From a bacterium (lineage in GTDB: Bacteria > BMS3Abin14): 41,956 nt of DNA. Made by a program: the position numbers and the translations under genes. Location: positions 1 through 41,956 of the forward strand of contig JARGFZ010000024.1 in the NCBI GenBank assembly GCA_029210965.1. The letters are read 5' to 3'. Positions 6,215-41,956 of this stretch are shown here, piece by piece (position 1 is the first letter of the stretch; every line of letters starts with the position of its first letter). Under the pieces are notes generated by a model. It saw nothing but the letters and a program-made list of their open reading frames with translations. It was not told the DNA's origin and ran no database searches.

Positions 6215-6614
6215 GGGGGGATTATCCCTTTCGAGAAGGCAGAATGCAGAATGTAGAACGCAGAATAAATCCCATTCATAATCGATTCATAGGTGTTTTG
6301 GAGGATGTTGTCAAAAAAAACAGGAGGCTGAACAGGGAAGGAGGAAGGAGGAATAATACGCCTTCCCTCGTCCTGTATCCTTCTGTTTTTCGCCAGGTCG
6401 CTCAGTCGCTCATTCTCTTTGTCGGACTGTTTTACCCAGCTTACCGGTTTTCTCAGTGACCTCCGTGACTCTGTGGTGAAAAACATCGCGTTTATAGAAA
6501 CCGTTCCTTAACCAGGACTTAAGCCTTCCTCCACCCGTCGCCAAGGCTATGGGTGGCAAGCTGCGTCCGAAGCCTGTCACGCCAGAGGCGTGACGGCCTC
6601 TGCGTTAAAATCCT
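6215..6614. repeat. Repeat-rich gap between rsmB and the PASTA gene
   Basis: No gene was found here. 6239-6266 is a four-unit heptamer array (GCAGAAT, GCAGAAT, GTAGAAC, GCAGAAT). 6337-6357 is a three-unit array (GAAGGAG twice, then GAATAAT). 6450-6530 is a copy of the dispersed GTGGTGAAAAACATCGCC element. 6561-6606 matches 22825-22870 at 45 of 46 positions and contains the 8-bp hairpin GTCACGCC-AGA-GGCGTGAC. Confidence 0.75.
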
Positions 6615-16845: not shown

Positions 16846-17255
16846 GGAGGAAAAGCGGCTCCTGAAAGACGGTTATTTTCCCCCCAGTTATTGAGGACAC
16901 TGAGAAAACCTGAATCTTGGAAAACCTCCACCAACGTCATTCCGGGCCGAGTGAAGGAGGACCCGGAATCCAGTCGCTCTTGTCTGCCACGGCGAAGTGC
17001 GAAGGACGAAGACGGGTCATCGCGAGCCGATACCATGCGAAGCGATCCCGGTTACTATTAAAAGCGACGTTTTTTTAACGCAGAGTACGCGACTTGTCGC
17101 GGCGTAGCTGAAAGCGAAGACGGAAGGAACGCAGAGGAAGCTTAATCCTGGTTAAATACCGGTTGCTATAACGGCGATGCTTATCACCACGGAGATGTTG
17201 AAGCATGGAGGACGAGGAGAAAGGCTAAATTCCGGGGTTAACGATTGGAGTTATT
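16846..17255. repeat. Dispersed-repeat gap
   Basis: No gene was found here. It contains a match (16925-16946) to the reverse complement of 4121-4142. A GTCATCGCGAG...GCGATCC palindromic element lies near 17015-17050. 17093-17124 is a shortened copy of the 43-bp GTCACGCCGTAGCT element. 17130-17184 is an inverted copy of the GTGGTGAAAAACATCGCC element and is very similar to 35382-35446. Confidence 0.65.
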
Positions 17256-28290: not shown

Positions 28291-30242
28291 GCAGCCAGCT
28301 CAGCCTGGAAGGGTATAGGGAGTGTCACGTTTGCTCCGTCACCAACAAGATGAAAGCCAGGCAATGTTTCCAGTGTATCGGGCGCCTGGATCTTAAGGAC
28401 CTGCTGCTTCTCGAGGGAGAAAAGCGCTGGCGTCGTCAGCGAGCACCCATCCTGTCTGCCATATTTCCGGGATTGGGCCACTGGTACTCGGGCCGCAGGT
28501 ATATCGGTACCTACTTCTTTGCCATGGCTCCTCTGAGCATCGGCCTTATCCTTGCAACCTACCAGAAGTGGAGCTGGGGGTTGTCGATCCTTACCTTGTC
28601 CTTTATTCTTGTCTGGTTCCTTGCCATCATCGATTCCAGAAAAGGCCCCTTCTACTTCAATCCCCCCTGCCAGGAGGCCTGTCCGGGCAGCGTGCCATGC
28701 TCCCACTATGTTCACCTTGCCGCGGCAGGGAAAGACCTTGAATCCCTGGAACTGGTTGAGTCGGTATGCCCCTTTCCAGGGACCATAGGAAGGATCTGTC
28801 ATCACCCCTGCGAACAGGAATGCAACCGCGGCAAGGACGGTGAGTCGGTGGCCATCTGCGCTCTGAAGCGGTTCGTGGACGACAATACGGACAGATCCTA
28901 TAACTTCTACCGCAGGGAACTGGACAAGGGAGTCGAACCTGTGGGCAAGAAGGTTGCTGTGATCGGGGCTGGGCCTTCGGGTCTGAGCGCGGCTCTTTAC
29001 CTGAAACTCTTCGGGTTTGACGTCACGGTCTTCGAAGGCCGTGAGTTCGGGGGAGGCACTCCCGCTATTTACGCTCCGGAGTACAGGTTGCCACACAGCA
29101 TATATAAGCGTGAAGTGGACAGGATCCTCGAACTGGACCTGGACCTGAAGTTCGGAATGAGGCTTGGGGAGGATTTTACTCTCCAGGATCTGGAGAAACA
29201 GGGATTCAATGGCATCTACCTCGCCCTTGGCGCCATGCGGTCCATTGTTCTGCCCCACACCGGTGATGAAAAAGAAGGGTTCCTGGACGGTCGGGATTTC
29301 CTGGAAACGGTGGTCATTGGCGGCGGGATGGAGCTTCCAGGCGAGGTCCTGATCATAGGCGGTGGCAATGTGGCCATGGATGTGGCCCGTTCCGCGGTGC
29401 GCTGCGGTGCGGACAAGGTGAGGATCATCTGTCTGGAGAAACTGCCCGATCCGGAAGAAAAGAAGTTCACCTACGAGAAAAACGAGTGGCGCCGTGTCAA
29501 AACCGAGGATACAAACCAGTTCATGCCTGCCCACCCCTGGGAGATCGAGGAGGCTCTGGCCGAAGGTGTCCAGGTCCTGGATGGCGGGGCGACCCTATCC
29601 TTTGACAGGGAGGGTGGGAAGGTCGTGAGAGCTCACTGCCTGAAGGTCGAGAGGATCGACCGTGATCCGCAGGGCAGGCTGATCCCTGTGCTCACTGACG
29701 GTTCCGAATTCTCTGTTAAGGCCGACTGGGTCATCACCGCCGTGGGATCGGCTCCGGATTTCAGCTCCCTGGGCGGAGTTCCCAGGACAACCCCACTTAT
29801 GGAAGGAACGCCCCTGGTTCAACTGGAAGAGGGCACAGGGGTATCTATCCCGGTCGTGGCCGGAGGCGATCTGGCTGTGGGGCCGGCATCGGTGATCGAG
29901 GCCATCGCTGCCGGCAAGGAGGCCGCCCTTCATTTTTACAGGTCCCTTGTGGGAAGCCCTGCAGTCACTATCCGCTACAGGACACGCAAACTGATGGAGC
30001 CGTGGGCCAACTACGCCGACAGCCTGGACTTCAGGAACCGCCGCCGGGAGTTGACCATCGCGAAGGATGAAAGAGTGTGCTCCTTCAAAGAGGTCTATGG
30101 CGGGTTCGCCGAGACAGTGGCGAGGCAAGAGGCCGACCGGTGCATGCGCTGCGACTGGCCGCTGATGAGGGAAAGTAAAGTGAGGAAATTCTTCCGAAGC
30201 ATTAAAGGACAGAACGCAGAAGAAGGTCAAGAACAAGGTTAA
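28287..30242 (+). CDS. Membrane-anchored GltD-like Fe-S flavoprotein
   Basis: 651 aa from the ATG at 28287, which overlaps the yjbQ stop. The order is: an N-terminal zinc-ribbon-like CHVC...CFQC (13-30); a TM2-like membrane part (about 55-117, PGLGHWYSGRRYIGTYFF then two hydrophobic segments); an Fer4_20 8-Cys domain (C128, C132, C138, C161, C171, C175, C179, C191); an FAD site VAVIGAGPSGLSAALYL (223-239); and an NAD(P) site LIIGGGNVAMDVARSA. The end (GQNAEEGQEQG) contains a GAACGCAG stretch that looks repeat-derived. The soluble part matches glutamate synthase small subunit and related NAD(P)H:acceptor modules. The membrane anchor suggests electron transfer at the membrane, perhaps with another subunit. 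Confidence 0.82.
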   Translation: MSSQLSLEGYRECHVCSVTNKMKARQCFQCIGRLDLKDLLLLEGEKRWRRQRAPILSAIFPGLGHWYSGRRYIGTYFFAMAPLSIGLILATYQKWSWGLSILTLSFILVWFLAIIDSRKGPFYFNPPCQEACPGSVPCSHYVHLAAAGKDLESLELVESVCPFPGTIGRICHHPCEQECNRGKDGESVAICALKRFVDDNTDRSYNFYRRELDKGVEPVGKKVAVIGAGPSGLSAALYLKLFGFDVTVFEGREFGGGTPAIYAPEYRLPHSIYKREVDRILELDLDLKFGMRLGEDFTLQDLEKQGFNGIYLALGAMRSIVLPHTGDEKEGFLDGRDFLETVVIGGGMELPGEVLIIGGGNVAMDVARSAVRCGADKVRIICLEKLPDPEEKKFTYEKNEWRRVKTEDTNQFMPAHPWEIEEALAEGVQVLDGGATLSFDREGGKVVRAHCLKVERIDRDPQGRLIPVLTDGSEFSVKADWVITAVGSAPDFSSLGGVPRTTPLMEGTPLVQLEEGTGVSIPVVAGGDLAVGPASVIEAIAAGKEAALHFYRSLVGSPAVTIRYRTRKLMEPWANYADSLDFRNRRRELTIAKDERVCSFKEVYGGFAETVARQEADRCMRCDWPLMRESKVRKFFRSIKGQNAEEGQEQG

Positions 30243-30281
30243 AAGATCGTCATTCCGACATCATTGAAGTCCCGTTCCTTA

Positions 30282-30362
30282 CAAATCAATGACTTACGGA
30301 GTGAGTCATTGATTTGGGCGCCCCGCGCGGGGCGCATTGATGACTTTTTGCGAAGTCATCAA
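30282..30362. repeat. Three consecutive perfect hairpins
   Basis: 30282-30294 pairs with 30304-30316 (13 bp). 30318-30335 is an 18-nt palindrome of G and C only. 30337-30346 pairs with 30353-30362 (10 bp). The last contains GACTTTTTGCGA, shared with 193-204. The cluster ends 7 nt before the ribosome binding site of the small Cys-rich gene. Either a dispersed palindromic repeat or a structured leader. Confidence 0.75.
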
Positions 30363-30380
30363 CTTTCCAGGAGGAAAAAC

Positions 30381-30569
30381 ATGAGCAAGGATGTCCATAA
30401 ATGCAAAGGCAGCGACAGCTGTCATGAGGAGAACCACATGTGCAAGATCGTGATCCGGCAGGAGTTTGACAGGGTGCGTGAGATCGTCAGGGACAGCGAA
30501 TATTACTGTAAGCTCTGCGGCCGGGCCGCTCATAACGAAGCCAATCTCTGTAAGCCGGCGAGAATCTAG
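30381..30569 (+). CDS. Small cysteine-rich protein
   Basis: 62 aa, with GGAGG (30370-30374) 6 nt before the ATG. Six cysteines and several histidines: KCKGSDSCHEENHMCK, then YYCKLCGRAAHNEANLCKP. The second part (CKLCGRAA...NLC) is a zinc-ribbon-like pattern found in small proteins of Deltaproteobacteria; the function is unknown. It lies behind three hairpins and ahead of a strong terminator, so it is probably expressed separately from the flavoprotein gene. Confidence 0.75.
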   Translation: MSKDVHKCKGSDSCHEENHMCKIVIRQEFDRVREIVRDSEYYCKLCGRAAHNEANLCKPARI

Positions 30570-30575
30570 GTCTGG

Positions 30576-30612
30576 ACAAACAAAGCCTCCCGGTACGGGA
30601 GGCTTTGTTTGT
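30576..30612 (+). terminator. Strong terminator after the Cys-rich gene
   Basis: A perfect 16-bp stem (30576-30591 with 30597-30612), a 5-nt loop and T-rich right arm. It begins 7 nt after the stop codon. Confidence 0.9.
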
Positions 30613-30706
30613 TGAGGAACCTTTACAATGAGCAATGCAATTAAGGTTTCAACCTAAACTCCGTTTCTGGCTAAACTCGAAACCCTTGTTTCATAATTCC
30701 GGGCGA

Positions 30707-30783
30707 GTAGAAGGTAGAAAGTAAGAAACTCAGTGCCTGGCGTCTGGTGCCTGGGAACAAGGTACCAAATACCAGGTACTGCT
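30707..30783. repeat. Eleven-unit heptamer array
   Basis: GTAGAAG, GTAGAAA, GTAAGAA, ACTCAGT, GCCTGGC, GTCTGGT, GCCTGGG, AACAAGG, TACCAAA, TACCAGG, TACTGCT. The sequence changes along the array while the 7-bp step holds. The rest of 30613-30909 holds no gene. Confidence 0.65.
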
Positions 30784-30909
30784 CTTCAGTCCCAATTCAC
30801 GGCCTGAACCCTTTGGTTCCTCAACAACAAACAGCAAGTGGCGAGGAAAAGAGTTATACTTTTACCTTCATACTTTTTGCTTTCTATCCGTATCCAAGAG
30901 AAGTGTGTC

Positions 30910-31806
30910 ATGCGTCGTATTCTTCTGTTTCTGGTAACAAACTTTGCTGTCATCCTCGTCCTTGGAATTGTCGCGTCCCTATTGGGTGTTAATCGGTTTT
31001 TAACACCATCAGGCCTCGATCTCAAAGCACTCCTGATCTTCTCCTTTATCTTCGGAATGGGCGGCTCATTGATATCCCTTCAGATCTCCCGATGGTCAGC
31101 CAAGCGCCTCACTCGCTGCAAGGTCATCACTGGCCGCAGTGGCAGCGAAACCGAAACATGGCTCTATTCCACGGTGGAAAGGCTTACCCGCCAGGCTGAC
31201 CTCCCCATGCCCGAGGTCGCTATCTACTCCAGCAGCAGCCCCAACGCATTCGCTACGGGACCAAGCAAGCGCCGGTCCCTCGTGGCCGTCAGCACCGGTC
31301 TCATGGACAACATGAAACAGGATGAGGTCGAGGCCGTTTTGGCCCATGAAGTCAGCCATATCAGGAACGGGGACATGGTGTCGCTGGCTCTTATCCAGGG
31401 AGTTGTCAACACCTTCGTATTTTTCTTCGCCAGGGTCGTGGGGTACGCTATCGACGCGGCCCTTTCCAAGGGCAAACAGAGCAGAGGCCCAGGAATCGGT
31501 TATTATCTGGGAACCATCGTTGCTCAGATCCTGTTCAGTATCCTCGCCTCAATCGTTGTTTTCTGGTTCAGCCGGAAACGGGAATTCAGGGCAGACCAAG
31601 GCGCCGCCCGGCTGTCCGGCGCGGAGAAGATGGTCTCCGCACTGCAGGCCCTCCAGCGGGGGGTGTCGCAGCCACTGCCGGGCTCCATGGCGGCCTTCGG
31701 GATATCTGGTAAAAAAGGGACCGGCCTGAGCCGGCTCTTTATGACCCATCCTCCCCTCGAGGAGAGGATCGCGGCCCTGCAGGGCTCTGGAGCACACCCG
31801 GAATAG
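30910..31806 (+). CDS. htpX: HtpX membrane metalloprotease
   Basis: 298 aa from the ATG at 30910; an ATG at 30838 would add 24 residues read from intergenic sequence. Two N-terminal transmembrane segments (4-24, 38-58), then the zinc motif HEVSH (146-150, HExxH), two further hydrophobic segments, and the downstream Glu of the M48 family in SRKREFRADQGAARLSG. It degrades misfolded membrane proteins. NAFATGP, a family signature, lies at about 112-118. It is followed by a terminator. Confidence 0.95.
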   Translation: MRRILLFLVTNFAVILVLGIVASLLGVNRFLTPSGLDLKALLIFSFIFGMGGSLISLQISRWSAKRLTRCKVITGRSGSETETWLYSTVERLTRQADLPMPEVAIYSSSSPNAFATGPSKRRSLVAVSTGLMDNMKQDEVEAVLAHEVSHIRNGDMVSLALIQGVVNTFVFFFARVVGYAIDAALSKGKQSRGPGIGYYLGTIVAQILFSILASIVVFWFSRKREFRADQGAARLSGAEKMVSALQALQRGVSQPLPGSMAAFGISGKKGTGLSRLFMTHPPLEERIAALQGSGAHPE

Positions 31807-31833
31807 GGGAAAAAGGCCTCAGGATTGTACAGG

Positions 31834-31889
31834 GCAGAAAATAGAAAGTAACATGTAGAAAGTTAAAAAGTAGATACAAGATACTTGGG
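31834..31889. repeat. Eight-unit degenerate heptamer array
   Basis: GCAGAAA, ATAGAAA, GTAACAT, GTAGAAA, GTTAAAA, AGTAGAT, ACAAGAT, ACTTGGG, between the htpX stop and its terminator. Confidence 0.6.
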
Positions 31890-31918
31890 ACAGGTACCCG
31901 CAAATACCTGTCCCTTTT
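31887..31918 (+). terminator. Terminator after htpX
   Basis: A perfect 10-bp stem (31887-31896 with 31905-31914, GGGACAGGTA and complement), 8-nt loop, then four T residues. Confidence 0.8.
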
Positions 31919-32255
31919 ACCTTGAACCTGTTTCCTCATTACTTTCCTCCCAGAGATCTTCAAGGACTGGAAAAGGCTGAGCCAAGGGATCGCCGATGCG
32001 AAGTCACGCCATCCGTCTTCGTTGCACCATGATTGCGACTCCGACGTGACAAGCAGGCGTGGTTAAAAGGCAAGATACGACCCTAGGGTCTTCCAGGAGC
32101 CAGGAGCCAGGAGCCAAAAGGAAAGCGTGCTTCCTTTGATGGCGGCTAAAGCTGTCTCTCGCAGGGGAGCCCTTCGATCATGCCATTGGCGTGACTCAGG
32201 CGGCAGGGTACGCAGAGGGAAAGATTATTTACGGATTGGGAATTAAGTTCCGGGA
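31919..32255. other. Gap without genes
   Basis: Nothing coding is supported. 32094-32114 holds three exact CAGGAGC units. 31995-32030 contains TCCGTCTTCG and GTCACGCC fragments related to the 43-bp repeat family at 34705. Confidence 0.5.
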
Positions 32256-32429
32256 TTAGCTTTTCAGCTTTTCCCTGATACCCTTGGACCGTTCGGGCAT
32301 GGCCTTGTGGAAAAATTCCGCCTGCGCCTGCAGCCTGGCAAGCTTGTCGCGGACGAAAACGCTCTGCCATGCCTGGATCTGTTCCCTGGAACGATAATAG
32401 AGCAGCATCCAGGGGGCCTTATTACTCAT
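32256..32429 (-). CDS. Small helical partner of the nucleotidyltransferase
   Basis: 57 aa, beginning MSNKAPWMLLYYRSREQI. It is basic and helical, with FHKAMPERSKGIREKLKS at the end. It starts 8 nt inside the end of the truncated nucleotidyltransferase gene, so the two form one transcription unit. A small gene of this kind beside such nucleotidyltransferases suggests a two-gene module, possibly toxin-antitoxin-like; that is inference from the layout. Confidence 0.5.
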   Translation of the reverse strand: MSNKAPWMLLYYRSREQIQAWQSVFVRDKLARLQAQAEFFHKAMPERSKGIREKLKS

Positions 32430-32800
32430 CGTCCCACCCCGCAAGGATCCTTCTCAGGTGAACTGTATCCGCTTCATCCTGGGGCCAGCCTGTGCCTTCC
32501 TTCATGGCGATGAGAGCCTCGATGGGGGCAAGGGGAACCACACTTCCCTCGATGTCCATCTTTTCCCTGTTATCATAGTTGGCGCTGAAACTGACCGGCT
32601 CATTAATGAGAATATCCACCTGAAACCAGGAATTCGCCCTGTCGTAAAGGGAAAAAGCCAGCATCCCCTTTTCCTCGATCCAGTTGCGCCTGACAGCAGG
32701 ATCGAGGATCAGTTCCAGTTCCACCGGCGCCCTGGGAGCCAGGTCCAGAACTTGGGCGCTATCGATGAAGCGCCTCAGGTTGTTTTCCTCGAGGCAGATT
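32422..32800 (-). pseudogene. Truncated nucleotidyltransferase-like gene
   Basis: The readable protein runs from about LEENNLRRFIDSAQVLDL through APRAPVELELILDP, WIEEKGMLAFSLYD and FQVDILINEPVSF to APIEALIAMKEGTGWPQDEADTVHLRR. This is the C-terminal two-thirds of a family of stand-alone nucleotidyltransferase-like proteins (DUF6036/AbiEii-like). The N-terminal part with the G-S...D-x-D catalytic site is missing. Upstream of 32800 the frame stays open but becomes AT-rich and unrelated. A GTG at 32724 could start a 100-aa remnant. Likely inactive as a transferase. Confidence 0.6.
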
Positions 32801-33077
32801 CCCGGCCTGACCCCCCGATTCTGGGTTTTGTTTTTGTTGTAAATGGCTCGGATAATTTGGAAAATTATGAAAAAACAAATGGATTCGACCTGGATAAAGG
32901 GGACTTTAAATTTGAATTTGTACCTGATGTTGTTGTTTTCGATTCCGGGAGGGTGTTACGTAGACGCATCTCTAATTAGTCTGAAATATCTGGTTGTTTA
33001 AATTGGGACCTCAAGGTTGCCCATCTCAAGGCTCGTCATCCGACTGACCCCCAGAATTCCACTGATTCTAAATGCAC
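32801..33077. other. AT-rich gap upstream of the toxin-antitoxin pair
   Basis: 32820-33010 is clearly richer in A and T than its surroundings and abuts the broken end of the nucleotidyltransferase gene, so it may be foreign DNA joined there. A plus-strand open frame through it has no start signal and no family resemblance. No gene is called. Confidence 0.4.
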
Positions 33078-33141
33078 TTGACAGGGCCACAAGTCTGTAT
33101 ATGCTTAGTAACAACAATGTTGTTACGCCAGGAGGCCTCCT
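33078..33141 (+). promoter_or_regulatory. Promoter and operator of the AbrB/Doc pair
   Basis: TTGACA (33078-33083) and TATGCT (33100-33105) have a 16-bp spacer. A 19-bp inverted repeat at 33108-33126 (GTAACAAC-AAT-GTTGTTAC) covers the expected start point near 33112, a good position for autorepression by the antitoxin. A second, 12-bp palindrome (33130-33141, AGGAGGCCTCCT) contains the Shine-Dalgarno of the antitoxin gene. Confidence 0.7.
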
Positions 33142-33143
33142 TT

Positions 33144-33371
33144 ATGATCAAAAACCTGAAAAAGCATGGAAACAGTATGGCCCTGGTGATAGAAAAACCG
33201 ATCCTGGATCTGCTGGGGGCCGACGCCGACACTCCTTTCGACATCACCACCGATGGGCAGGCTCTGATTCTCACACCCGTTACAGACCCTTCCCGCCAGG
33301 AAGCTTTCCGATCCGCCCTTGAAGGGACTAACACCAGGTACGCCAGGACTCTGAAGAAACTGGCGGAATAA
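33144..33371 (+). CDS. AbrB/MazE-family antitoxin
   Basis: 75 aa. The SpoVT/AbrB swapped-hairpin N-terminus is clear (IKNLKKHGNSMALVIEKPILDLLGA, then FDITTDGQALILTPV). The C-terminus would wrap the toxin. The start follows GGAGG (33131-33135) by 8 nt. The Doc gene begins 4 nt after its stop. It is expected to neutralise Doc and repress the operon through the upstream palindrome. Confidence 0.85.
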   Translation: MIKNLKKHGNSMALVIEKPILDLLGADADTPFDITTDGQALILTPVTDPSRQEAFRSALEGTNTRYARTLKKLAE

Positions 33372-33375
33372 TCCG

Positions 33376-33768
33376 GTGGCCCCGAAATTCCTGAGTTTTG
33401 CTGAGGTCATCGAGATCCACCAGGACCAGTTGGCCCGTTACGGCGGTGATCCGGGCATAAGGGACTTAAACGGTTTGAAATCGGCCCTCGGCACCCCCGC
33501 TGCCACTTTCGGCGGCGAGTTTCTCCATCCCGATATTTGCACCATGGCGGCGGCCTACCTTTTCCACATCACCGGGAACCATCCTTTGGTGGACGGCAAT
33601 AAACGGACAGGGACCGTGGCCGCCCTGGTGTTCCTGGATCTGAACGGATACGAATTTAATGCCCCCGAGGATGAACTCACAGATGCTGTCATGGCAGTGG
33701 CATCGGGGCAATCAGGCAAGGATGAGGTGACTGAATTTTTCCGCAAATGGACCAGGAGAAAGGAATAG
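33376..33768 (+). CDS. doc: Doc-type Fic toxin (death on curing family)
   Basis: 130 aa with a GTG start. The Fic/Doc motif is HPLVDGNKRTG (69-79), with the catalytic His and the NKR phosphate-binding part intact. The N-terminus (FLSFAEVIEIHQDQLARYGG, then RDLNGLKSALGTP) is typical of Doc, which phosphorylates elongation factor Tu. It is paired with an AbrB-type antitoxin. It appears complete and therefore potentially active. Confidence 0.9.
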   Translation: MAPKFLSFAEVIEIHQDQLARYGGDPGIRDLNGLKSALGTPAATFGGEFLHPDICTMAAAYLFHITGNHPLVDGNKRTGTVAALVFLDLNGYEFNAPEDELTDAVMAVASGQSGKDEVTEFFRKWTRRKE

Positions 33769-34257
33769 AAACACCGAATCGTAAGACCAGTCATCCGCAT
33801 CTCACTCTTTGAGTTTGCAGCTTTTCAGGAGAATCTTATGCCTTGAGATACGACCCTCGGCCCTCCATGGTGTCATTGCGAGGCCCGCAGGGCCGTGGCA
33901 ATCTAGGGTTTTGAGATTTGAGATTTGAGATCTGAGATACTCTTTTTTAACAGGGATGAAGGGGATGGGGAAAGGCAGTCCAAGGTCCAATGTCCAAGGT
34001 CCAACGGGGAAAACCAGGCCTGTCATTCCGGAAGTTCTGCCAAAGGCATGACTATCCGGAATCTATTTCAAATTGCTGAAGCGGCAAGAGCGGCCTCTCG
34101 CCCTTCGACAAGCTCCCCTCGACAGGCTCGGGGCAGGCAGGCCAGGCGCAGAGTTCGCAGGGAACGCAGAGAAATTCATGAAAATTGGATTAACCAAAAC
34201 CTGCTTGTCCGCCATAGCTGGACGGCAGTCGTTAGCGACGGCGGAAGAATGTGCCTG
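33769..34257. repeat. Gap of dispersed repeats downstream of doc
   Basis: No gene. 33870-33903 is a GTCATTGCGAGG...GGCAATC palindromic element of a type widespread in bacteria. 33909-33936 has four heptamers (TTTTGAG, ATTTGAG, ATTTGAG, ATCTGAG). 33978-34005 has four (GTCCAAG, GTCCAAT, GTCCAAG, GTCCAAC). 34022-34055 is one arm of a 34-bp inverted repeat whose other arm is 34951-34984. 34204-34245 is a 42-bp copy of the element that interrupts the RHS gene. Confidence 0.75.
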
Positions 34258-34296
34258 TCACGTCGTAGCCGATCGAGGGGCGTTGGCGAAGACGGA
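34255..34296 (+). repeat. Third copy of the 43-bp element
   Basis: It begins CTGTCACGTCGTAGCC and ends GCGTTGGCGAAGACGGA, the same layout as the copies at 34204-34245 (plus) and 34705-34747 (minus). It covers the 3' end of the frame of the RHS remnant. Confidence 0.7.
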
Positions 34297-34789
34297 AGGT
34301 GCGACCCCACGGTTTCCCCTTATGTGTAAATTAACAACAAAACCAAAATGGAACATGAAACACCAAGAACTGTATGAATAATTATTACGATCCTTAGAAT
34401 GTTCCCAAGCCTCAATTAATTCTTCAGGCAACGCATCCACCATATGATTCGAAAAATCATCATAACCATCCCCATCCCCCCCATCACCCGATCTATCATA
34501 TGTACTTGGATCTGATGGGTCATCATCATGGTCCGAATTGCCTAATTCATCCTCATACTCGCCTTCGATCTCCATCCCCGTCGTATCCGTATACCTGAAC
34601 GGATTATTCCTCCCGTAGGCGAACCTGTTGAGGCTCTGCGGGTCCAGGATATTCCCCCATAACGGATCTTCGGAAATAAACCGTCCCACCTCCGCATCAT
34701 ACCATCCGCCTTCGCTAACGCCTGTCGACCAGCTACGGCGTGACAAGTCTCGCATTGAAATAGAACAGACCGGCATCCTTGTTCCAGGG
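34258..34789 (-). pseudogene. RHS-repeat core remnant, frameshifted by a 43-bp insertion
   Basis: The conserved RHS core can be read as NKDAGLFYFNAR (34748-34783) and, in another frame, WYDAEVGRFISEDPLWG then LNRFAYGRNNPFRYTDTTG (34704 downward). The two frames are separated by exactly 43 bp (34705-34747) of dispersed repeat. The tail after TDTTG is short and acidic (GDGGDGDGYDD...) and then runs into another repeat copy before the stop. More than the 5' nine-tenths of an RHS gene is missing. This is a decayed end of an RHS/polymorphic toxin gene. Confidence 0.8.
34705..34747 (-). repeat. 43-bp repeat inserted in the RHS core
   Basis: Minus-strand sequence begins CTTGTCACGCCGTAGCTGG and ends GCGTTAGCGAAGGCGGA. 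Aligned with 34204-34245 it shows about 36 identities with one gap. It separates codons for NAR and WYDA, which are contiguous in intact RHS proteins, and has a length (3x14+1) that breaks the frame. Confidence 0.85.
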
Positions 34790-35502
34790 GTGGCAGGTAA
34801 GCATCGAATTAAAGTGAGGAGGGGTTTGATCCAATAACCAAGATCCAAGGAATTTCTCTGCGTTCCCTGCCTGTCCTGAGTCCCGCCGTTGGCGGGATCG
34901 AAGGGCGAAAGGCAGCCTTTAACGCTTTTCAGAAATTTTAAAAAATCTGAATAGTCATGCCATTGGCAGAACTTCCGGAATGACGGTTTGCCTTTTCCCC
35001 GACACACCGACACTCCGTTACCCCGATACGGGTTTCCCATCCCCTCCATCCACTTTATCCTTAAAATCGGAATAAAGAATGTGGAATAGGGAAGGTGGTA
35101 GAACGGCAAGTGCAGTAGTGCAGAATACTCATGCACAAAAGCCCCGCCATAGGTGCGGGTGCACTTGTGCACTGAATTTCGTGTCTTCCCCACTGATTTC
35201 AGGTTTTCCTCTGCGGCCCTCTGCGGTGCGAACATGATTGGTCGCTCTGCGAAACTCTGCGTTAAAGCTTTAGTCACTTTTTATAAAGAGCGGGATTGCT
35301 TCGGCCCCATCTTTAGCCTCGCAATGACAGGCTCTTTTTCTTCCTGTTTGGATTTGCCTTTCTCAGTGTTCTCTGTGAGCTCAGTGGTGAAAAACATCGC
35401 CGTTATAGCAACCGGAATTTAACCAGGATTAAGCTTCCTCTGCGTTCCCTGCGTCCCTGCGAGAGGCAGCCGTTATCGTTTTTACTGGAAACGTGTTTTC
35501 CC
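34790..35502. repeat. Repeat-rich gap downstream of the S4 gene
   Basis: No gene. 34951-34984 is the second arm of the 34-bp inverted repeat. 34992-35044 is identical over 53 bp to 41776-41828. Around 35083-35110 there are GAATGTG/GAATAGG-type heptamers. 35290-35330 is an inverted GTCATTGCGAGG element. 35360-35450 is the best copy of the GTGGTGAAAAACATCGCC element. Confidence 0.75.
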
Positions 35503-35537
35503 CTTCAACGTTCTACATTCCACATTCTACATTCTGA
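35503..35537. repeat. Heptamer array at the end of the S4 gene
   Basis: CTTCAAC, GTTCTAC, ATTCCAC, ATTCTAC, ATTCTGA; it ends 2 nt from the stop codon of the S4-domain gene. Confidence 0.78.
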
Positions 35538-35539
35538 CT

Positions 35540-35827
35540 TTAAAACAATTCTTCCTCAATAATCTCCTCGTTCAGAACCTTATAACCCTCTCCCTTTTTC
35601 ACCTGCTTGCCCGGTATTTCCATCACCTCCACCAGCACCATCTTCCTCGCGTACCGGATCTGCAGACGGTCCCCAACCTTGACCGACTTGCCCGGTGCGG
35701 CGGGCCTGCCGTTGATTGTGACATATCCGTTGTCGCAGAGGGTGGCGGCCAGAGGGCGGCGTTTGACCAGGCCGGAGCGTTTCAGGTACAGATCGAGTCT
35801 CAGACGACCTTGTTCTTTATCCGTCAT
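35540..35827 (-). CDS. Small S4-domain RNA-binding protein
   Basis: 95 aa from the ATG at 35827 (GAGG 9 nt upstream). The S4 domain is clear: RLDLYLKRSGLVKRRPLAATLCDNGYVTINGRPAAPGKSVKVGDRLQI. It is the Hsp15/YabO (RqcP) size and layout. Such proteins bind peptidyl-tRNA on split 50S subunits or other rRNA in ribosome quality control. The neighbourhood with parvulins and mfd is seen in several phyla. It overlaps the upstream SurA-like gene by 11 nt. Confidence 0.85.
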   Translation of the reverse strand: MTDKEQGRLRLDLYLKRSGLVKRRPLAATLCDNGYVTINGRPAAPGKSVKVGDRLQIRYARKMVLVEVMEIPGKQVKKGEGYKVLNEEIIEEELF

Positions 35828-36728
35828 CAGGGAAGACCTCGATGTAGGTGGTCTTCTTGAGTTCATTCAGCCATCGGGTGCGGACAGATTCTTCCCTGTC
35901 CGCCATGAGGCTTCTTTCCAGTGTATTTCTCACCTCCGTAAAAGGTGGTGGCTCGACGGTTCCACGGGACTCCAGCCGCAGAATATGGTAGCCGGCCGAG
36001 GTTCTCACCGGGCCTCCCACCTCGCCAGGTTCAAGGGTCGCGGCGAGATTTTCCAATTCAGGAAGGAGTTCTCCCTCATTGAAAGTTCCAAGTCGTCCAC
36101 CCTTGTCGGCCGATGAACTGTCCTGGCTGTATTCGGAAACCATGCTGTTAAAGGATGCGCCGTTTGCGATCCGGGCAAGGATCTGCTCAGCGGATCTCTC
36201 TACAGCTTCGTCCTTTTCCACTGGAGCCCCCTCATCAACAGCCAGCAGGATATGACTTACAGTGGAAGTGGTTTTCCTGGGATAGGTCTTGAGATAGAGC
36301 TCCTGCAGTTCACTGTCCGAGGCCTGAATTTGGCTGGACAGGGCAAGGCCCATTGCTTTGTTGATGGTGATCTGGACCCGGAGGTTCTCCCTGAACGACT
36401 CAAGAGTGTCCCCTGTGGAGGCAAGGGCTTTTTCAAACTGATCTGGAGCTATTTTGTTTTTCTCACGGATGGAAGTTTCCGTTTGATCCAACTCTTCCGT
36501 TGAAACGGAGATGTTTTTTCCGGCTGCCCATATAAGAACAAGTTGTCGCTCTATAAGAAGATCCAGGATCTTTTCCCTGGGGAGATTGGGATTCTGTTCG
36601 ATGGCGGCTGTAAGTTCACGATGAGTTATGGCCTCATTACCTACACGGGCCACCACCCTGTCACCGGCAAAAGCTGCCGATGCCATGAAGTTCATAGACA
36701 GGAGAAAGATGGTGAGAACGGTCCTCAT
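35817..36728 (-). CDS. SurA-like periplasmic peptidyl-prolyl isomerase
   Basis: 303 aa. It has a signal peptide (1-21, FLLSMNFMASAAFAG), a SurA N-terminal chaperone region (VVARVGNEAITHRELTAAIEQNP) and one parvulin domain (about 155-260, VSHILLAVDEGAPVEKDEA... GGRLGTFNEGEL... AGYHILRLESR). One PPIase domain rather than the two of Escherichia coli SurA. It likely helps outer-membrane proteins fold. The stop of the upstream ppiC-like gene abuts its ATG, so the two form an operon. Confidence 0.88.
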   Translation of the reverse strand: MRTVLTIFLLSMNFMASAAFAGDRVVARVGNEAITHRELTAAIEQNPNLPREKILDLLIERQLVLIWAAGKNISVSTEELDQTETSIREKNKIAPDQFEKALASTGDTLESFRENLRVQITINKAMGLALSSQIQASDSELQELYLKTYPRKTTSTVSHILLAVDEGAPVEKDEAVERSAEQILARIANGASFNSMVSEYSQDSSSADKGGRLGTFNEGELLPELENLAATLEPGEVGGPVRTSAGYHILRLESRGTVEPPPFTEVRNTLERSLMADREESVRTRWLNELKKTTYIEVFPDDG

Positions 36729-41393: not shown

Positions 41394-41956
41394 GCCGCGT
41401 AAATTTGTTAGAAGCTTAATTTTTCGTTCCTCTTATTTTAGAAGTCAAAAGCATTAACGCAGTGGGTCGCGGAGAATGTCGATATTGAATGAAGGATTGC
41501 GCATCTAGGATGGAAAATCTATACCGGTAATCAGTAATCCGCAATTCACATTGTCTTTCTCTCGCCCGTTCCCTTCGGTCTTCGCTGGAGTCTCGTCGTG
41601 ACAGGTCGGTCACTAGATGTGCCCATCGACGCGTTTCACTTGCTCAGGACAGGCAGGGGACACAGGAAAAATCTAAATAGTTTAATATGCTTTTCCTCTG
41701 CGAACTCTGCGTCCCTGCGAGAAACTGCCTTTATCGCTAATAAAGGAGTGGTGCCTGTATCAGTTAATTGTCTGTCTTTTCCCCGACACACCGACACTCC
41801 GTTACCCCGATACGGGTTTCCCATCCCCACCATCCCCTTCATCCCTGTTAAACAAGCTCTTGCCGCTCTTTCGCGGTAACCGAGACATAATGATGTCTGT
41901 CAGTTGTCAATAAGGATCTGCCTACCTTGCGACGTGGGTTATGCTTGGCATATATG
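41394..41956. repeat. Repeat-rich right edge
   Basis: No gene. 41528-41548 shows 7-bp-spaced GGTAATC, AGTAATC units. 41570-41604 is a diverged inverted copy of the 43-bp element. 41700-41735 repeats the CTCTGCG...GTCCCTGCGAGA segment of 35445-35465. 41776-41828 is the 53-bp exact repeat of 34992-35044. The promoter of mfd should lie just above 41393, but no boxes were convincing. Confidence 0.65.

What the first reader, a model, noticed from the sequence alone, without database searches (positions are those of the whole stretch)
34705..34747. A 43-bp dispersed repeat has inserted cleanly into the conserved RHS core
The codons for GLFYFNAR and WYDAEVGRF, contiguous in intact RHS proteins, are separated by exactly 43 bp that also occur at 34204-34245 and 34255-34296, with shortened copies at 17093-17124 and 41570-41604. 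The insertion adds no other bases and shifts the frame. This is direct evidence that the intergenic element moves.
Basis: seen in the sequence. Interest (0 to 1): 0.72.

Follow-up and report, generated by a model that had tools for sequence, protein, structure and literature searches.

The report
Mobile REP-like palindrome interrupts RHS remnant
A tiny palindromic DNA element, one of about 100 copies in this bacterium, has jumped cleanly into a leftover piece of an RHS gene; other copies show exact empty sites in a sister genome, so the family really moves, although the enzyme that moves it is unknown.

Summary
Window 34705-34747 (-) is a full copy of a REP-like palindrome, CYTGTC-(stem CGYCRTAGC, loop, GCGAMGRCG)-GA. 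The genome holds about 100 copies and all 11 family-level relatives carry it. The RHS core is contiguous at this point in a relative's homologue, so the 43 bp are an insertion; it shifts the frame and adds an in-frame TAG.

The same ends appear at four empty sites in a sister genome and at five self-nested insertions, with no target duplication and usually AG or TG next to the element. Movement is shown more firmly by these sites than by the RHS copy.

Corrections: the RHS target is only a short remnant; 17093-17124 is a normal short-loop copy; 41570-41604 is not a recognisable member.

The mobilising enzyme is unknown: no convincing REPtron was found, and four carrier genomes show no Y1/RAYT gene. 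No duplication and a one-sided CT/CA target (bottom strand) suggest single-strand, HUH-type insertion. Closest known are the GTAG/CGTC-tagged REPs; this family has a TGTC tag but lacks their stem and tail signatures. New variant of a known kind.

The parts
34705..34747 (-). 43-bp element copy inserted in the RHS core remnant; contributes a frameshift and an in-frame TAG
   Evidence: contiguous in homologue L135
34204..34245 (+). 42-bp element copy, intergenic
34254..34296 (+). 43-bp element copy, intergenic, head-to-tail with the previous one
17093..17124 (+). 32-bp short-loop element copy
   Evidence: 37.6 bits
34573..34704 (-). RHS core remnant, part downstream of the insertion (TIGR03696 positions 37-76)
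34748..34783 (-). RHS core remnant, part upstream of the insertion (NKDAGLFYFNAR)
   Evidence: outer border approximate

Best explanation
The 43 bp are one copy of a non-autonomous, REP-like mobile palindrome. Shown: the unit runs from CYTGTC to GGA; it is an imperfect hairpin with a conserved mismatch bulge and a variable loop (30-34 or 42-43 bp in nearly all copies); it inserts precisely, adds no other bases, makes no target duplication, and mostly sits directly 5' of AG or TG; it has changed position since this genome split from its sister genome, and one copy landed in an RHS core remnant. Inferred: it moves as single-stranded DNA, cut and joined by an HUH/Y1-type transposase (IS200/IS605 or RAYT kind) acting in trans. 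On the bottom strand the target reads 5'-C(T/A)^ followed by the element TCCGCC...GACARG, which resembles the CT/CA cleavage reported for TnpA-REP enzymes. The enzyme was not identified.
For: Copy number and specificity: 31 pattern matches vs 0 control, at least 99 by model. Insertion at RHS: contiguous homologue. Exact ends: empty sites L003/L093, L027/L089, L006/L092, L026/L094; nested copies L007, L137, L152, L173, L174. No 3-6 bp target duplication and WG flank in 62 of 78, also seen in copies found with a flank-free pattern. Stem covariation, conserved mismatch. CT/CA cleavage by TnpA-REP: PMC8266576.
Against: The enzyme part is weak: no copy beside the two Y1 genes of the own genome; no Y1_Tnp match in G001, G008, G009, G011, all of which carry copies, although several are incomplete drafts; the G004 RAYT-like gene with copies on both sides has its own terminal repeats inside them; no GTAG guide 5' of the hairpin on the strand that shows the CT/CA target. 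The RHS copy alone does not fold better than shuffles.
Confidence: 0.6

Rival explanations
1. The element is mobile, but through another enzyme or route: an IS110/Piv-like recombinase, a phage integrase, or replication-coupled template switching that copies hairpins.
For: Carrier genomes without a detectable Y1 gene; CGTC-tagged REPs are reported to lack a dedicated transposase (PMC3733652).
Against: The fixed ends, the one-sided dinucleotide target and the absence of duplication are what a sequence-specific strand transfer would give; template switching should give ragged ends. No such recombinase was searched for here.
Confidence: 0.33
2. The copy in RHS arrived by recombination or duplication of a block of intergenic repeats rather than by moving itself; repeats on both sides of the remnant lie in matching inverted order (34005-34245 and 34705-35001).
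For: Inverted repeat pairs I1, I4, I5 and I2 are nested around the remnant.
Against: RHS codons touch the element on both sides with no other bases, and the same ends are found at unrelated empty sites. The spacings of the pairs differ by tens of bases.
Confidence: 0.05
3. The 43 bp are a native part of the RHS reading frame, or a chance match.
For: None found.
Against: Homologue without it; in-frame TAG and frameshift; 31 matches against 0 in the control.
Confidence: 0.01

Closest known systems
CGTC-tagged REPs (Di Nocera et al. 2013, PMC3733652), including Rickettsia RPE-4/RPE-6 and Neisseria dRS3
   Same: Short hairpin with a 5' tag that in many copies reads TGTC; high copy; sometimes inside genes; no associated transposase gene.
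   Different: Stem starts CG, not AT; tail is GGA, not CCA; stem is interrupted by a mismatch bulge; loop is often longer than 4-5 bases.
GTAG-tagged REPs with RAYT / TnpA-REP
   Same: High-copy imperfect palindrome with a mismatch bulge; target resembles the CT/CA cleavage sites of TnpA-REP (PMC8266576).
   Different: No GTAG tag beside the hairpin (GTAG or ATAG lies within the stem); no REPtron found.
MITEs
   Same: Small, non-autonomous, dispersed, with empty sites.
   Different: 30-43 bp, a single hairpin, no terminal inverted repeats of a parent IS found, and no target duplication.
IS200/IS605 insertion sequences
   Same: Insertion without target duplication next to a short target.
   Different: No gene inside; ends of the local IS200-like element (L001) do not resemble the element.

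Membership tests
REP (broad sense) | Short (20-40 bp) palindromic repeat in high copy | tested here: met
   At least 99 copies, mostly 30-43 bp, stem covariation
REP (broad sense) | Mainly extragenic | tested here: inconclusive
   Copies examined look mostly intergenic, but no gene annotation was made for all of them; the RHS copy is in a gene remnant
CGTC-tagged REP | CGTC tag (TGTC and CCTC variants accepted) at one end | tested here: met
   CTTGTC or CCTGTC in 66 of 78 copies; variants per PMC3733652
CGTC-tagged REP | AT at the first two stem positions | tested here: not met
   Stem starts CG
CGTC-tagged REP | Unpaired tail, mostly CCA | tested here: not met
   Ends in GGA in 73 of 78. Most, not all, described families fit CCA
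GTAG REP / REPtron | GTAG tag 5' of the hairpin | tested here: not met
   Tag is CYTGTC; GTAG/ATAG lies within the stem
GTAG REP / REPtron | RAYT gene flanked by the repeats | tested here: not met
   One of 14 Y1 loci has copies nearby, outside the gene's own terminal repeats
IS200/IS605-type (HUH) mobilisation | No target-site duplication | tested here: met
   No 3-6 bp duplication in 78 copies; two 7-bp matches, apparently in repeat contexts; clean empty sites
IS200/IS605-type (HUH) mobilisation | Short fixed target on one side | tested here: met
   AG or TG after the element in 62 of 78, also with the flank-free pattern
IS200/IS605-type (HUH) mobilisation | Single-strand excision and insertion by a Y1 transposase | not testable with these tools
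   Needs biochemistry or a transposition assay

The most novel reading that the evidence does not exclude
A TGTC-tagged REP-like family that moves actively without a resident RAYT, by an enzyme not yet linked to REPs, in a lineage where sister genomes offer base-exact empty sites.
Probability: 0.25. Interest if true: 0.65.

Novelty: new variant of a known kind. Interest (0 to 1): 0.42.

Why it matters
[quoted passage not shown] This family gives exact ends, empty sites, nested insertions and a target rule, so candidate enzymes can be tested against a defined substrate. It also adds a case of a REP-like element breaking a coding sequence, though in a gene remnant.

Tried and rejected
RAYT association was tested in the own genome and the family and not supported. 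Rfam gave no meaningful match in 30000-36500. A full-text search for element sequence strings returned 164 papers; the 20 listed were unrelated by title. The genome-contig search with the neighbouring PpiC gene gave one close relative, PFL40. Four of the eight loci found in G001 (L007, L014, L017, L028) were too diverged around the element to read the junction, or were not aligned there. Excess hairpin stability of the single RHS copy was tested and not found. The 'shortened copy' at 41570-41604 was rejected.

Full report
Observation. On the minus strand, GLFYFNAR ends at 34748 and WYDAEVGRF begins at 34704, with exactly 43 bp between them. The downstream piece matches the RHS core family TIGR03696 from model position 37 on (36.4 bits, cut-off 32.5). 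In relative G005 the homologous core (L135, 75% identical over the 44 residues) runs straight through the same point with no extra residues, and the more distant core in G010 (L136) is contiguous there too. The 43 bp are therefore an insertion into an ancestrally contiguous sequence. It shifts the frame and gives an in-frame TAG after four codons. The two RHS flanks were compared separately and were not joined.

The target is a remnant. Recognisable RHS homology upstream of the insertion is short, about 12 residues, and the own genome has only weak RHS-core matches elsewhere. The whole stretch 30210-35358 is absent from the aligned locus of sister genome G001 (PFL40, JALHUC010000454.1), where the neighbouring sequence is 90-94% identical. 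So the copy does not show that a working RHS gene was inactivated.

The element. Thirty-one strict matches occur in the own genome and none for the reversed pattern. A covariance model built from 22 copies finds 99 at E up to 0.001, a lower bound because only 150 candidates were scored. Copies start CTTGTC or CCTGTC in 66 of 78 and end GGA in 73 of 78; lengths cluster at 30-34 and 42-43 bp because the loop varies. The stem is supported by covariation: 94.4% of cells paired against 88.6% in shuffles and 17-72% in slid versions (the alignment was fitted to the model, which leans towards the structure). The mismatch in the stem is itself kept: G.A in 38 and A.C in 34 of 78, never G-C. The RHS copy alone folds no better than its shuffles, so the structure claim rests on the family.

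Movement. Eight of sixteen tested loci were located in G001, and none of those eight has a strong copy in the fetched stretch. Four have readable junctions, and all four are clean. At L003/L093 the extra piece in G000 is exactly CTTGTC...GGCGGA, 42 bp, and the borders cannot be shifted. At L027/L089 it is a 30-bp copy with the same ends; L006/L092 and L026/L094 agree, read by eye through a more diverged right flank. A precise excision in G001 would give the same picture at any one site, but the RHS copy (ancestrally contiguous codons) and five nested copies show gain. In the nested cases, taking out the inner copy restores a complete outer copy; L173 and L174 may share an origin.

Target rule. 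The two bases after the element are AG in 49 and TG in 13 of 78 copies. The model includes these two positions and so favours them, but copies found with a pattern that ignores the flanks show the same bias, and at L003/L093 the AG is present in the empty site. The left flank shows no comparable rule. No copy has a 3-6 bp target duplication; two have a 7-bp match, and some copies lie in heptamer or palindromic repeats.

Distribution. All 11 family-level relatives carry the family (3 to 83 matches). Outside, 9 of 133 sampled genomes match, mostly once or twice, with G019 as an exception with 11.

Mechanism. No duplication and a one-sided target suggest single-strand insertion of the IS200/IS605 kind (established knowledge of that family; inference here). 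On the bottom strand the target is C(T/A)^, like the CT and CA cleavage sites of TnpA-REP enzymes (PMC8266576). Against a resident RAYT: the two Y1 genes of the own genome have no copy nearby, four relatives with copies have no Y1_Tnp match, and the RAYT-like gene in G004 with copies on both sides has its own inverted repeats inside them. RAYT genes with such repeats (TIRYT, motif GGGGWSAS) are described in PMC3733652; the repeat of L002 contains GGGGTCAG and fits that motif. Some of these genomes are incomplete drafts, so absence of a gene is not proof.

Comparison. In the 2013 survey, CGTC-tagged REPs vary to TGTC, can lie inside genes, and are not associated with transposase genes. The family here shares these traits but fails the stem-base and tail signatures, so it is filed as REP-like, works like a REP, and is not claimed as a member of the CGTC or GTAG superfamilies.

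Noticed in passing
window 30210-35358: About 5.1 kb, with an M48 peptidase gene, a Fic/Doc gene and the RHS remnant, is absent from the aligned locus of sister genome G001, where about 460 bp of other sequence lies instead. Gain or loss not resolved.
   Followed up: partly
window 34005-35001: Four pairs of inverted repeats lie in nested, matching order around the RHS remnant, as if intergenic repeat modules were arranged symmetrically.
   Followed up: no
L124 319-388, L125 1501-1570: A sister-looking palindrome (CTTGTGAGGGC...GCGACGCCCCA) sits in the loop of a copy; similar strings occur beside many other copies, suggesting related repeat families.
   Followed up: no
stem columns 14/91 of alignment A2: A non-canonical position switches between G.A (38) and A.C (34) and is never G-C, as if the mismatch itself were kept.
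   Followed up: partly
window 33871-33904 and 35316-35329: TGTCATTGCGAGGC repeats in both orientations, which look like a second REP-like family.
   Followed up: no
window 32010-32055 (-) and 6528-6562 (-): Two weak matches to the element model, about 19 bits each, possibly decayed copies.
   Followed up: no
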